From positions 1 through 47,496 of the forward strand of contig JAJSAI010000031.1 in the NCBI GenBank assembly GCA_024274695.1: a stretch of 47,496 nucleotides of DNA, given 5' to 3'. This stretch comes from an archaeon (GTDB taxonomy: Archaea; B1Sed10-29; JAJSAI01). The notes under the pieces were generated by a model. The model searched no databases and was not told where the DNA came from. It saw nothing but the letters and a program-made list of their open reading frames with translations. The position numbers and the translations under genes were made by a program. This document shows, piece by piece, positions 10,210 through 47,496 of this stretch (position 1 is its first letter; every line of letters starts with the position of its first letter).

Positions 10210-11088
10210 CTAAATATCTCCTTCTCTCTTGAGCTCCCGCACCTTTTCCAGGGTGTCAACCTGCTTGTACCCCAAGTCCCTAACCCCTTCTCTTGTTTCC
10301 AGGAGCCTGTCCGCGAACAGGTTCCTCGCGAACGCGGGGGTGATCGGAGGATTCCTACCGGCAGCTTTCCACGCTGCCTGCGCAGGGTATCCTGTTAGCA
10401 CGAGGGGCCAGGAGAACGCCCTCGGGAGCACGAGCACTGGCCTCGGCCTGGCGAGCTCCCTGTAAAAGTCTCTTGCTCTGACAGGGCTCTTGTCCCCGAC
10501 CTCGTAAACCTTGTTCTTCCCTTTTTCCAGCGCGTTGGCCAGGGCTTCTGCCACGCTGTGCTTCCAGGACAAGTGCAGCACCTGGCTCCCGCAGGGTATG
10601 GGAAGCCACGTGAGCCGTTTTATCCTCCTGAGCACGCTGGCGTCATAAACCAATGCGGGCCTTATTACAGGGGCCTTGAGCCCCTGCTCCCACGCGCTCA
10701 TTACAATCCGTTCGCACTCCTTCTTGGCCTTGGAGTACGGTGTTTCGTGGGGCAGTTTGACCGCCGCGCTGCTCGCGTGCACGAACACGCGCACCCCTTC
10801 TTCCAGCACCGCTTTAATCAGGTTTTCTGTGCCCTTCACCGTCACCCTGTGGTGTTCCTTGTACGGCCTGTTGTGGCCCTTGAGCTTTGCCAGATGGACC
10901 ACCGCGTCAACACCCTCGACCGCCCTCCTGGCATCCTCTGGGTCCGCAAAGTTCCCCTGCACCACCTCGCACCCGGGAACGTTCACACGCTGTCTGGACA
11001 ATACTCTGACAGAGTATCCTCTTTCCAGAAGGATCGGGATCAGTTCCCTTCCCAGGAACCCAGTGCCGCCGGTAACGAGGACAACCAT
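10210..11088 (-). CDS. NAD(P)-dependent epimerase/dehydratase (atypical SDR)
   Basis: MVVLVTGGTGFLGRELIPILLERGYSVRVLSRQ; YSKAKKECERIV. Confidence 0.9.
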   Translation of the reverse strand: MVVLVTGGTGFLGRELIPILLERGYSVRVLSRQRVNVPGCEVVQGNFADPEDARRAVEGVDAVVHLAKLKGHNRPYKEHHRVTVKGTENLIKAVLEEGVRVFVHASSAAVKLPHETPYSKAKKECERIVMSAWEQGLKAPVIRPALVYDASVLRRIKRLTWLPIPCGSQVLHLSWKHSVAEALANALEKGKNKVYEVGDKSPVRARDFYRELARPRPVLVLPRAFSWPLVLTGYPAQAAWKAAGRNPPITPAFARNLFADRLLETREGVRDLGYKQVDTLEKVRELKREGDI

Positions 11089-25154: not shown

Positions 25155-26239
25155 GAGAGTAACTTCTCTAGGTCTTCTAGATGTTTTTTCCAGGAAAACA
25201 CCTCCTTTGCTTTCTCTGATATTTTTTTGTAGTCTTCTTTCTTTCTTGTCACGAGTTTAATTTTTTCCAACAGCTCTTGCTCATTCCTGCAGAGGTACAC
25301 CCCAATCCCCTTCATTCTGTCATATATTTCTTTGTGAGGGGGTATGTTTGAAAGTATTACAGGGGTTCCAAGATAGAGAGATTCTAAAACTACTTTAGGC
25401 AGGCCCTCATGTTGTGAGTACAATACTAATGCTTTCGAGCGTGCTATTAATTCCAGTACCTCAGACTGGTTTTTTCTCCCGAGGAAGACTATCCTCTTAT
25501 CTTTTCCAGAAAGTGCTTTCAGGTTTTCTTCTTCAGGTCCTGATCCTACAATCAAGTAATTAATGTCAGGAATACCCTTTTTGACTGCGATTATTCTGTC
25601 AACCCTCTTTAAAGGAATAAGTCTGCAAACAGTTATTATTTGTTTTCGCCTAGATCTATTTTTTATTGGGGGGATTATTGAAAAATTGTAGATGACTTTT
25701 ACTTTATTGTTTGGAATGTGGTACATTTTTGTTAAATACTCTTTCATAAATTTGCTGCATGTGTATACTCGGTCATATCCTCTTACTACAATTGACTGTA
25801 ACAGAAGTATGTGCTTGTTTGTTTTACGGTGTAAGAATTCTGTGAGATTATATTCTATCTTTTTTTCTCTTCTTGCTTTTTCCCATGCTATGTCTCCCAC
25901 GAAACGCAGTACTATCTTTACTCCGAAAATCTTTGCTGGAACTATTGCAGGCAGGCTAGATGATAATGGGTCTAGGGAGAGTATTACATTTGGTTTGAAT
26001 GATTTTATCTGTCTTATGATCTCTACAAATAGCTTTGCTATTCTTAGTATAAAGTTCTTTTCATGGATTATAATCACGTTATTATCAGCTTTCTTTCCAT
26101 TCAACGCGATTATCCTAACGTGATGCCCTCTCTTTTCTAGTAATGGAACTATTTCTTTTGTGTATGTTGCAGGCCCGCCTATTTCAGGGGGGTATATGGG
26201 GGTTATGAGCAGAACTTTGAGGTTGTCCTTCTTAGTCAT
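25151..26239 (-). CDS. Glycosyltransferase (GT4-like)
   Basis: LKVLLITPIYPPEIGGPATYTKEIVPLLEKRGHHV; SQHEGLPKVVLESLYLGTPVILSNIPPHKEI. Confidence 0.92.
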   Translation of the reverse strand: MTKKDNLKVLLITPIYPPEIGGPATYTKEIVPLLEKRGHHVRIIALNGKKADNNVIIIHEKNFILRIAKLFVEIIRQIKSFKPNVILSLDPLSSSLPAIVPAKIFGVKIVLRFVGDIAWEKARREKKIEYNLTEFLHRKTNKHILLLQSIVVRGYDRVYTCSKFMKEYLTKMYHIPNNKVKVIYNFSIIPPIKNRSRRKQIITVCRLIPLKRVDRIIAVKKGIPDINYLIVGSGPEEENLKALSGKDKRIVFLGRKNQSEVLELIARSKALVLYSQHEGLPKVVLESLYLGTPVILSNIPPHKEIYDRMKGIGVYLCRNEQELLEKIKLVTRKKEDYKKISEKAKEVFSWKKHLEDLEKLLS

Positions 26240-29526: not shown

Positions 29527-30772
29527 ACCCTTTTCCCTTTAGAATTATCTCTTTCTTATTCAGACGATTGTGGCAGTCTACTATTATTTTTGCTGGACTT
29601 TCTATGATCTTTTTAGAATTTTCAATAAAATTATTATGCGGGACTGCTAATATTATTATGTCGACATTTTTTATGGCATCTTCAAATGAATCAACAGTGT
29701 TATACTCCGGATATACAGGATCATATACTCTTATTTCTGCTATTTTTTGAGATACTACCGACAAGAGTTTAAGCGCAGGAGACTCTCGTATATCATCTAC
29801 GTTTGGTTTATACGTGACACCTAAAAATGCGGCACGTGATCTGGAAAGTAAAATTCCATTTTTATTAGCAGAGTCATATAATTTCAACATGATATATTCT
29901 GCCATACTATCATTTATGCTCCGAGCTAGTCGAAAAAAGGAAGTGTTTCTGATATCCTTCTTTTCCATCTCTTCTATTAAATAATACGGGTCCACAGGTA
30001 TGCAGTGTCCTCCCACTCCAATACCAGGATAAAAGGGCATGAATCCGAAGGGTTTAGTTGTAGCGGCAGATATAACCTCTTTTACATCGATTTTTAGCTG
30101 ATCACAGACTCTCGCGATTTCATTGACAAATGCTATATTGACGTCTCTAAACATATTTTCATAGATTTTAGTTAATTCAGCAGTTTCAATATCAGGAGTT
30201 AAATGTGGAGGTTGTTCTAGAATATTTGTATAGAACTCTCTGGCTTTTTCTCTGCTCTTATCATTGAGAGCGCCCAGGATCCTCTTTATCCTTGGAAGGG
30301 GCCATTTATCTCCGGGTGATATCCTTTCAGGACAGTACGCTACATAAAAGTCTGTTCCTGCCTTTAGTCCCTTTCTTTCCAGTATCGGTACCACGAGGGT
30401 CCGTGTTGTTCCAGGCGCTATTGTTGATTCAATTATTATTGTTTCGCCTTTATGCAACCGTTCAGCTATCGAAGAAACTGCTTTTTCTAAGTAAGAATAG
30501 TCAGGCCGTTTGCCTGTTTTTACAGGTGTGGGAACACATACTAGAATATAATCAAAGAACTGGTCTGGCATGCTGTACGTAAATTTTTCTGAAGGAATAC
30601 TCTTAAGCAGCCTGGTCGCTTCAGGATCATCCGTGGTGACCCTTCTTTTTTGTAGGTTAAGGATTTTATTCTTGTCTATGTCATATCCTGTTACATCGTA
30701 GCCTACCTTTTTTGAATATGCTAAAAGAGGGAGGCCTACATACCCTAATCCTACCACACATACTTTTTTCAT
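29507..30772 (-). CDS. Nucleotide-sugar dehydrogenase (UDP-ManNAc dehydrogenase-like)
   Basis: MKKVCVVGLGYVGLPLLAYSKKVGYDVTGYDID; IESTIAPGTTRTL; GIGVGGHCIPVDPYYLIEEM. Start placed at ATG 30772 because the track's longer start overlaps the upstream GT. Confidence 0.93.
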   Translation of the reverse strand: MKKVCVVGLGYVGLPLLAYSKKVGYDVTGYDIDKNKILNLQKRRVTTDDPEATRLLKSIPSEKFTYSMPDQFFDYILVCVPTPVKTGKRPDYSYLEKAVSSIAERLHKGETIIIESTIAPGTTRTLVVPILERKGLKAGTDFYVAYCPERISPGDKWPLPRIKRILGALNDKSREKAREFYTNILEQPPHLTPDIETAELTKIYENMFRDVNIAFVNEIARVCDQLKIDVKEVISAATTKPFGFMPFYPGIGVGGHCIPVDPYYLIEEMEKKDIRNTSFFRLARSINDSMAEYIMLKLYDSANKNGILLSRSRAAFLGVTYKPNVDDIRESPALKLLSVVSQKIAEIRVYDPVYPEYNTVDSFEDAIKNVDIIILAVPHNNFIENSKKIIESPAKIIVDCHNRLNKKEIILKGKGYVGIGR

Positions 30773-36772: not shown

Positions 36773-36891
36773 GGGCCCATAGCTCAGCCAGGTTAGAGCG
36801 CCGGTCTTATATGGCCCGCTCTAGCACAGGTTTTGCTGGCGGCGCTTGAGAGAACCGGAGGTCCTTGGTTCGAATCCGAGTGGGCCCACCA
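36773..36891 (+). tRNA. tRNA-Ile(UAU), intron-containing, CCA encoded
   Basis: Acceptor GGGCCCA/TGGGCCC, D-stem GCTC/GAGC, anticodon stem CCGGT/ACCGG, T-arm CTTGG-TTCGAAT-CCGAG. BHB: central helix CTTA/TGAG, bulges TAT and AGA; removing intron 36812-36852 (41 nt) gives loop CTTATAA, anticodon TAT. Confidence 0.88.
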
Positions 36892-46605: not shown

Positions 46606-46688
46606 TTTTATACCCCCTTTTTAAATTTTTGATTATATCTTTTATTTTTTTAAAATAAAAAATTTTCTGCCGGGCCCAGTGGGATCCG

Positions 46689-46775
46689 AAAGGGAAGACA
46701 CCTGTGGTTTCATACCAGGAATTTCCAATTCCGGGATGATTCGGAAAGGCCTTTGCCTTTCCGATACTTCCCTTT
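46689..46775 (-). repeat. Structured ~80-nt repeat, unit a (inverted orientation)
   Basis: Outer arms AAAGGGAAG/CTTCCCTTT (9 bp), inner hairpins CGGAAAGGC-AAAG-GCCTTTCCG and GGAATT-GGA-AATTCC, tail TGGTATGAAACCACAGGTG. Confidence 0.8.
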
Positions 46776-46810
46776 ACTCTCTTCCCTTCTTCCAAGGGAA
46801 AGGGGTAATA

Positions 46811-46890
46811 GGGGAATACCAAAAGGCGAAGCCTTTTGGATTATCTAAGAACCCAGGGGGCTCTTGGTATAAAACCGTAGGTTGTCCCTG
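46811..46890 (+). repeat. Structured ~80-nt repeat, unit b
   Basis: GGGA/TCCC outer, CCAAAAGGC-GAA-GCCTTTTGG, AAGAACCC-AGG-GGGCTCTT, tail GGTATAAAACCGTAGGTTG; nearly identical to 47415-47496. Confidence 0.85.
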
Positions 46891-46894
46891 TCAG

Positions 46895-46968
46895 CGGGCC
46901 CACCGGGATTCGAACCCGGGTCACAAGCTCCGGAGGCTCGCATTCTGTCCAGGCTAAACTATGGGCCC
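46895..46968 (-). tRNA. tRNA-Arg(CCG), no encoded CCA
   Basis: GGGCCCATAGTTTAGCCTGGACAGAATGCGAGCCTCCGGAGCTTGTGACCCGGGTTCGAATCCCGGTGGGCCCG; anticodon stem CGAGC/GCTTG with loop CTCCGGA; T-arm CCGGG-TTCGAAT-CCCGG. Confidence 0.9.
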
Positions 46969-46994: not shown

Positions 46995-47005
46995 GGGAGA
47001 GTGCT
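46995..47005. repeat. 3' arm of the 11-bp helix flanking the permuted tRNA (pairs with 47134-47144)
   Basis: GGGAGAGTGCT here and AGCACTCTCCC at 47134-47144 are perfect reverse complements. Confidence 0.9.
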
Positions 47006-47018
47006 CAGCATTTTTGAT

Positions 47019-47106
47019 CTCGAGGCCAGCGCGTTGACCACTCCGCCATCCCGGCGCTAACGCCGGGAGTGGGATTCGAACCCACGAGGGCAAAAGCCCA
47101 CTGGCT
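47019..47106 (-). tRNA. Circularly permuted tRNA-Ser(CGA): 3' half 47061-47106 transcribed first, 5-nt spacer TTAGC 47056-47060, then 5' half 47019-47055
   Basis: Reassembled 83-nt tRNA GCCGGGATGGCGGAGTGGTCAACGCGCTGGCCTCGAG + AGCCAGTGGGCTTTTGCCCTCGTGGGTTCGAATCCCACTCCCGGCG: acceptor GCCGGGA/TCCCGGC, anticodon stem CTGGC/GCCAG, loop CTCGAGA, class II variable arm GGGC-TTTT-GCCC, T-arm GTGGG-TTCGAAT-CCCAC, discriminator G. BHB central helix CTCG/CGAG with 3-nt bulges AGA and CGA. Confidence 0.92.
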
Positions 47107-47133
47107 CGCTCGTCTGACCAGGCTTTTCAGAAA

Positions 47134-47144
47134 AGCACTCTCCC
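47134..47144. repeat. 5' arm of the 11-bp helix flanking the permuted tRNA
   Basis: AGCACTCTCCC; see 46995-47005. Confidence 0.9.
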
Positions 47145-47207
47145 AAGAAAAGTTTTGGTCCCGGCGTTTTTATTACTTTTCCTAATCCTGGAAAAGAAGG
47201 AATGGCG

Positions 47208-47247
47208 GGCCCAGTGGGATCCGAAAGGGAAGACACCTGCGGTTTCT
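47208..47247 (-). repeat. Partial duplicate of 46674-46713 (repeat end plus tRNA-3'-end-like sequence)
   Basis: GGGCCCAGTGGGATCCGAAAGGGAAGACACCTGYGGTTTC occurs at both places with one difference. Confidence 0.9.
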
Positions 47248-47286
47248 CCCTCTACCCTCTTCCCTTCTTTAGGTAAAGGGAGGCTC

Positions 47287-47370
47287 ATAAGGGGATACCA
47301 AAAGGGCGTTGCCCTTTTGGATCATCCAGGAACCTTTGGTTCCTGGTATGAAACCGTAGGTGCCCCTTAT
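47287..47370 (+). repeat. Structured ~80-nt repeat, unit c
   Basis: Outer arms ATAAGGGG/CCCCTTAT (8 bp), hairpins CCAAAAGGGC-GTT-GCCCTTTTGG and CCAGGAACC-TTT-GGTTCCTGG, tail GGTATGAAACCGTAGGTG. Confidence 0.85.
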
Positions 47371-47414
47371 TCGGGTGAGGAGGGTAAAGAAAAATTTAGA
47401 AGGGAAAGGGGTAA

Positions 47415-47496
47415 TAGGGGAATACCAAAAGGCGAAGCCTTTTGGATTATCCAAGAACCCAGGGGGTTCTTGGTATAAAACCGTAGGTTGTCCCTA
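47415..47496 (+). repeat. Structured ~80-nt repeat, unit d (ends at the window edge)
   Basis: TAGGG/CCCTA outer, CCAAAAGGC-GAA-GCCTTTTGG, CCAAGAACCC-AGG-GGGTTCTTGG, tail GGTATAAAACCGTAGGTTG. Confidence 0.85.

What the first reader, a model, noticed from the sequence alone, without database searches (positions are those of the whole stretch)
46995..47144. Circularly permuted tRNA-Ser(CGA) gene
On the minus strand the 3' half (A38-G73, 47106-47061) comes before the 5' half (G1-G37, 47055-47019), separated by only TTAGC. Each half alone is not a tRNA; together they make a complete class II tRNA with matching acceptor, anticodon, variable and T stems. The ends form a textbook bulge-helix-bulge: central helix CTCG/CGAG, bulges AGA and CGA, with cleavage at AG^A and CG^A giving exactly positions 37 and 38. 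Flanking sequences pair over 11 bp (GGGAGAGTGCT/AGCACTCTCCC), holding the termini together. Established knowledge: permuted tRNAs are known in some algae and rarely in archaea (Thermofilum pendens). A permuted class II tRNA-Ser next to a normal tRNA-Arg is easily missed by standard annotation.
Basis: partly seen in the sequence, partly recalled or inferred. Interest (0 to 1): 0.9.

Follow-up and report, generated by a model that had tools for sequence, protein, structure and literature searches.

The report
Inside-out serine tRNA gene in archaeon
A small archaeon encodes one of its serine tRNAs inside out, with the back half of the gene before the front half, so the RNA must be cut, joined into a circle and reopened; this layout was known from algae but, in the papers I could search, not from archaea at this position.

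Summary
On the minus strand, 47106-47061 (A38-G73), TTAGC and 47055-47019 (G1-G37) are the two halves of one tRNA-Ser(CGA) in reversed order. Joined, they give a perfect 83-nt class II tRNA, 88% identical to the genome's own tRNA-Ser(UGA). No other Ser(CGA) exists in the 825-kb, 91% complete genome, although nearly all the rest of a 46-tRNA archaeal set was found. The ends fall in the same bulge-helix-bulge frame as 11 ordinary 37/38 introns of this genome. An 11-bp flanking helix begins where transcription should start, and a TATA box lies 34 bp further upstream than usual. EndA, RtcB and RNase P RNA are present. [quoted passage not shown] Screens of 397 archaeal genomes and a further small-genome phylum found no second case; every strong Ser-model hit inspected was an ordinary tandem tRNA pair. 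Best reading: a functional type II circularly permuted tRNA gene, apparently the first such in archaea (known archaeal cases, in Thermofilum, are type IV, 59/60). "Textbook BHB" is slightly too strong: the outer helix is only 2 bp. Expression is untested.

The parts
47167..47174 (-). TATA-like box AATAAAAA, 68 nt before A38; the transcript should start near 47148-47144
   Evidence: most tRNA genes of this genome with a clear TATA box have it 34-45 nt before the mature 5' end (Gly(CCC) has the identical AATAAAAACG at -34); here it is 34 nt further out
47134..47144 (-). 5' strand of 11-bp flank helix, GGGAGAGTGCT
47107..47112 (-). BHB leader side: CGAG (central helix) + CG of bulge CG^A
47061..47106 (-). 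3' half of tRNA-Ser(CGA), A38-G73 (variable arm, T arm, 3' acceptor strand, discriminator G73; CCA not encoded)
   Evidence: part of a 102.6-bit match to the permuted-Ser model, which includes this sequence
47056..47060 (-). intervening sequence TTAGC between G73 and G1, to be removed by RNase P / tRNase Z
   Evidence: removal inferred from the algal pathway (PMC3978253)
47019..47055 (-). 5' half of tRNA-Ser(CGA), G1-G37 (5' acceptor strand, D arm, anticodon CGA)
47016..47018 (-). BHB trailer side: third base A of bulge AG^A, then TC (2-bp outer helix with GA)
46995..47005 (-). 3' strand of 11-bp flank helix, AGCACTCTCCC
46895..46968 (-). ordinary tRNA-Arg(CCG) just downstream; its only TATA-like match lies in the permuted gene's trailer, so it may be co-transcribed

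Best explanation
A functional circularly permuted (type II, 37/38) tRNA-Ser(CGA) gene. Shown from sequence: reversed halves, complementary stems, splice-site frame, clamp helix, promoter offset, no other Ser(CGA) gene, EndA, RtcB and RNase P RNA encoded. Inferred: transcription from the distal TATA box gives leader-3'half-TTAGC-5'half-trailer; the 11-bp helix clamps the ends; EndA cuts after G37 and before A38; RtcB joins G37 to A38 into a circle; RNase P and tRNase Z cut out TTAGC; CCA is added. Origin (inferred): tandem duplication of an intron-containing tRNA-Ser(CGA), then loss of the outer halves; the clamp would be the relic of the intron's own hairpin.
For: Joined halves are a complete tRNA-Ser, 88% identical to the genome's Ser(UGA). 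No other Ser(CGA) while the rest of the 46-tRNA set is found except Pro(CGG). Same BHB frame as 11 canonical introns of the genome: stem 5/5, central helix CTCG/CGAG 4/4, cuts AG^A and CG^A. Flanks fold far better than shuffled flanks around the same core. TATA box displaced outward by about the length of the extra leader. EndA of the M. jannaschii (alpha4) size and architecture, RtcB, and RNase P RNA present. Three class relatives have a normal-order Ser(CGA) with a 37/38 intron. M. jannaschii EndA cleaves an artificial permuted pre-tRNA in vitro (work cited in PMC3978253).
Against: No RNA data. The outer helix of the BHB is only 2 bp, and the minimum-energy fold closes the 5' bulge. The TCG codon is rare (25 of 266 TCN codons in 14 window ORFs) and Ser(UGA) could read it, so the gene need not be essential. 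No second genome has it, so there is no covariation across permuted homologues.
Confidence: 0.9

Rival explanations
1. Dead remnant: a tandem duplication of tRNA-Ser(CGA) lost its outer halves and the remaining inner halves are a pseudogene; Ser(UGA) reads UCG codons.
For: Relatives have intron-bearing Ser(CGA), the expected raw material; UCG is rare; no transcript evidence.
Against: No decay in either half (all stems perfect, T- and D-loop consensus intact); the BHB frame, the clamp helix and an upstream TATA box at the right extra distance are kept. A remnant needs none of these.
Confidence: 0.06
2. Assembly artefact: reads of an ordinary tRNA-Ser(CGA), perhaps in tandem, were joined in the wrong order.
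For: Draft in 32 contigs; the contig ends 350 bp away in a repeat shared with three other contig ends.
Against: The repeats lie outside the 150-bp locus; a wrong join would not create an 11-bp complementary clamp and a displaced promoter around the halves.
Confidence: 0.03
3. The halves are used in trans, as split tRNA halves joining partners elsewhere, or the circle itself is the functional product.
For: BHB-spliced split tRNAs exist in archaea (PMC3218864).
Against: No partner half for Ser was found elsewhere: exact T-arm matches outside the first tRNA list were intron-containing genes, and the near-matches read were not tRNAs; both partners already sit on one transcript, clamped by their own flanks.
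Confidence: 0.01

Closest known systems
Type II (37/38) circularly permuted tRNA genes of algae, e.g. Ser(CGA) of Ostreococcus, Micromonas and the Bigelowiella natans nucleomorph (PMC3978253, Table 1)
   Same: Same split position, same tRNA species, relaxed BHB at the termini; linker length 5 as in the B. natans nucleomorph Ser(CGA).
   Different: Algal/nuclear genomes with eukaryotic-type (Sen) endonucleases; here an archaeon with a single M. jannaschii-like EndA and an 11-bp terminal clamp.
[quoted passage not shown] 2011, PMC3218864)
   Same: Archaeal, promoter displaced upstream of the 3' half, short linker (1 and 7 nt), BHB junction.
   Different: Split at 59/60 (type IV), CCA encoded, extra 37/38 introns, heterotetrameric endonuclease, Crenarchaeota; here 37/38, no CCA encoded, no intron, class II tRNA, DPANN-like lineage.
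Canonical 37/38 BHB introns of tRNA-Ser(CGA) in class relatives (G008, G015, G016)
   Same: Same tRNA, same splice site and same chemistry.
   Different: Halves in ordinary order with the intron between them.

Membership tests
Circularly permuted tRNA gene | 3' half encoded upstream of 5' half on the same strand with a short intervening sequence | tested here: met
   46-nt 3' half, TTAGC, 37-nt 5' half
Circularly permuted tRNA gene | Joined halves form one complete cloverleaf with identity elements | tested here: met
   ARAGORN tRNA-Ser(CGA), all stems paired, G73 and long variable arm
Circularly permuted tRNA gene | BHB-type splice motif formed by leader and trailer at the junction | tested here: met
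   same frame as 11 introns of the genome; relaxed form, outer helix 2 bp
Circularly permuted tRNA gene | Single promoter upstream of the 3' half, none between the halves | tested here: met
   TATA-like box at -68; the linker is only 5 nt. Consensus match only
Circularly permuted tRNA gene | No conventional gene for the same tRNA (supports need for it) | tested here: met
   genome 91% complete, so a gene in the missing part cannot be excluded
Circularly permuted tRNA gene | Circular RNA intermediate and mature tRNA in vivo | not testable with these tools
   no RNA data
Type II (37/38) subtype | Junction between positions 37 and 38 | tested here: met
   G37 and A38 at the bulge cut sites
Type IV permuted tRNA as in Thermofilum | Junction at 59/60 in the T loop, CCA encoded | tested here: not met
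   T arm intact in the 3' half; G73 is followed by TTAGC
Split (trans-spliced) tRNA | Halves on separate transcripts with complementary leaders | tested here: not met
   both halves lie within 150 bp on one strand, 5 nt apart

The most novel reading that the evidence does not exclude
First archaeal anticodon-loop (37/38) permuted tRNA, in a DPANN-like lineage with an M. jannaschii-type EndA, arisen by tandem duplication and outer loss of an intron-bearing tRNA-Ser(CGA) and independently matching the algal Ser(CGA) cases; perhaps helped by the tRNA-associated repeat copies that flank it on both sides.
Probability: 0.75. Interest if true: 0.75.

Novelty: new member of a known kind. Interest (0 to 1): 0.68.

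Why it matters
Only two permuted tRNA genes, both in one crenarchaeon and both split in the T loop, are listed for archaea in the reviews I could read. This one is split at 37/38, like most algal cases, in the same tRNA-Ser(CGA), and relatives still have the intron-bearing ordinary gene. That makes the recent-origin model (intron gene, tandem duplication, loss of outer halves) directly testable. It also gives a natural permuted substrate for the simplest type of archaeal splicing endonuclease, which so far was only shown to cut an artificial one. Practically, annotation would report this genome as lacking tRNA-Ser(CGA).

Tried and rejected
A generic 37/38-permuted covariance model (R1) over 19 genomes of the phylum gave many hits; of the 30 fetched as loci, those examined were ordinary neighbouring tRNA genes (3' half of one, 5' half of the next), tRNA genes next to chance matches, or intron-bearing genes, with no second permuted gene; two (L186, L191) were viewed at the wrong offset and not resolved. 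A Ser-specific model (R2) over 397 archaeal genomes and 160 genomes of another small-genome phylum: the window scores 102.6 bits (the model includes it), the next 67.3; the best other hits that I opened are tandem pairs of whole tRNA genes. Weak or partial Rfam tRNA hits in the same genome (Lys UUU, Gln UUG, His GUG) were suspected to be more permuted or split genes; they turned out to be D-loop and T-loop introns in ordinary order. Unassigned T-arm matches turned out to be intron-containing Arg(CCU), Arg(GCG), Leu(UAA), Leu(CAA) and Pro(UGG). An exact-pattern scan of GTDB r220 contigs for permuted tRNA-Ser found nothing, but own-genome records may be left out there. The lineage could not be named firmly: LeuRS pairs with Diapherotrites B1Sed10_29 at 90/96 support.

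Full report
What is there. The minus strand reads, from 47144 to 46995: GGGAGAGTGCT - 21 nt - CGAG-CG | AGCCAG...CCCGGCG (A38-G73, 47106-47061) | TTAGC | GCCGGGATGG...CCTCGAG (G1-G37, 47055-47019) | A-TC - 10 nt - AGCACTCTCCC. ARAGORN and Rfam see no tRNA here in the given order. Joining 5' half to 3' half gives an 83-nt tRNA-Ser(CGA), which ARAGORN then calls with all stems paired. It differs from the genome's own Ser(UGA) at 10 of 83 positions by my count on the alignment.

It is not chance. The 11-bp flank helix appeared in 4 of 3000 shuffles of the flanks. With the tRNA core left untouched, none of 200 flank shuffles reached the observed folding energy. The whole 149-nt stretch has z = -3.0 against dinucleotide shuffles.

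The rest of the genome. The window is contig C26 of an 825-kb draft archaeal genome, 91% complete. Its tRNA-Ser genes elsewhere are UGA, GGA and GCU. From Rfam hits, T-arm matches and reading of the places I count an otherwise full archaeal set, lacking only Pro(CGG); Ile(UAU) replaces the usual Ile(CAU). The motif GCGNNNGNCTCGAG, which spans the D-stem end and anticodon loop of Ser(CGA), occurs once in the genome, at the permuted gene.

The splice site. For 11 genes with 37/38 introns in the same genome I laid out the BHB frame in one register: five anticodon-stem pairs, four central pairs (three in a few genes) using bases 32-35, 3-nt bulges cut after 37 and before 38, then an outer helix of varying quality. 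The permuted gene fits the same register with stem CTGGC/GCCAG, central helix CTCG/CGAG, and bulges AG^A and CG^A. Its outer helix is only 2 bp, as in Arg(CCU). The minimum-energy fold prefers UGGUC/GAUCA at that point; keeping both bulges open costs 2.2 of about 76 kcal/mol. The motif is thus relaxed rather than textbook, and the 11-bp clamp is inferred to do the work of holding the ends.

Promoter. Most tRNA genes here with a clear TATA-like box have it about 34-45 nt before the mature 5' end. Before the permuted gene the box AATAAAAA (47174-47167), identical to that of Gly(CCC), lies 68 nt before A38. The predicted start then falls at or just before the 11-bp helix. This is the signal by which the Thermofilum permuted genes were found (PMC3218864).

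Enzymes. One EndA gene (172 aa) matches M. jannaschii EndA over its full length, and the aligned blocks around Y115, H125 and K156 of the M. jannaschii enzyme (active-site numbering from my own knowledge) keep Tyr, His and Lys. RtcB and an archaeal RNase P RNA (148.8 bits) are present. tRNase Z and CCA-adding enzyme were not searched.

Relatives. In the same class, G008, G015 and G016 have Ser(CGA) in ordinary order with an intron at 37/38, and G010 has it without an intron. Covariance models of permuted tRNAs found no second case: a generic model over the 19 genomes of the phylum, a Ser model over 397 archaeal genomes and 160 genomes of another small-genome phylum. Limits: few candidates per genome were scored in the large scans (11 or 27), the E-value cut was strict, only the best hits were opened, and two R1 loci were not resolved.

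Mechanism. Inferred from the algal pathway (PMC3978253): clamp, double EndA cut, ligation to a circle, removal of TTAGC by RNase P and tRNase Z, CCA addition. The review reports that M. jannaschii EndA cuts an artificial permuted substrate in vitro; this genome's EndA is of that kind.

Origin. Relatives have the intron-bearing gene, and the trailer-plus-leader of the permuted gene, if joined, would look like an ordinary intron with an 11-bp internal hairpin. [quoted passage not shown] It remains an inference; no intermediate was found.

Known or new. The review table lists 34 permuted genes, with only two from archaea, both type IV in Thermofilum; Ser(CGA) of type II occurs in several green algae and the B. 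natans nucleomorph, there with a 5-bp linker. Searches for later reports in DPANN or Micrarchaeota found none, but subscription papers are not held, so priority is provisional. I file it as a new member of a known kind: same mechanism and subtype as in algae, new domain for that subtype.

Surroundings. Two direct copies of a repeat (46668-46889 and 47203-47496) flank the locus; related copies follow tRNA 3' ends or lie in tRNA introns here and in class relatives. Whether they took part in the rearrangement is unknown.

Noticed in passing
window 46668-46889 and 47203-47496 (-); G000 C19:11096-11277, C22:10121-10184, C32:2466-2507, C9:13148-13186; class relatives L233, L234, L235, L236, L238: Element with core AAGGGAAGAGGGTAGAGGGAGAAACCGYAGGTGTCTYCCC: it sits right behind tRNA 3' ends, often ending in a second copy of the tRNA's last ~20 bases, and also inside tRNA introns (own Arg(UCG), Pro(UGG); relatives' Pro, Asp, Trp) and one rRNA-like place. 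It looks like a class-wide mobile element or intron family aimed at tRNA genes; four contigs of this genome break in it.
   Followed up: partly
G000 C22:~26050-26150 (L074), C32:~10222-10323 (L061), C21:~29990-30088 (L075): Non-canonical introns in the D loop of tRNA-Lys(UUU) and tRNA-Gln(UUG) and in the T loop of tRNA-His(GUG), in a genome whose only EndA found is of the M. jannaschii type, which is usually thought to be restricted to strict canonical sites.
   Followed up: partly
G000 C32:46214 region (L081): tRNA-Leu(CAA) seems to carry a second intron or insertion in its variable arm besides the 37/38 intron; behind it lies a short element ending in a duplicate of its 3' end.
   Followed up: no
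window 36773-36888 (+): Intron-bearing tRNA-Ile(UAU); only two CAU tRNAs (both Met-like) were found in the genome, so AUA may be read by UAU rather than by a modified CAU.
   Followed up: no
window 46895-46968 (-): tRNA-Arg(CCG) has no TATA box of its own at the usual distance; its only TATA-like match is in the trailer of the permuted tRNA-Ser, so the two may share a transcript.
   Followed up: no
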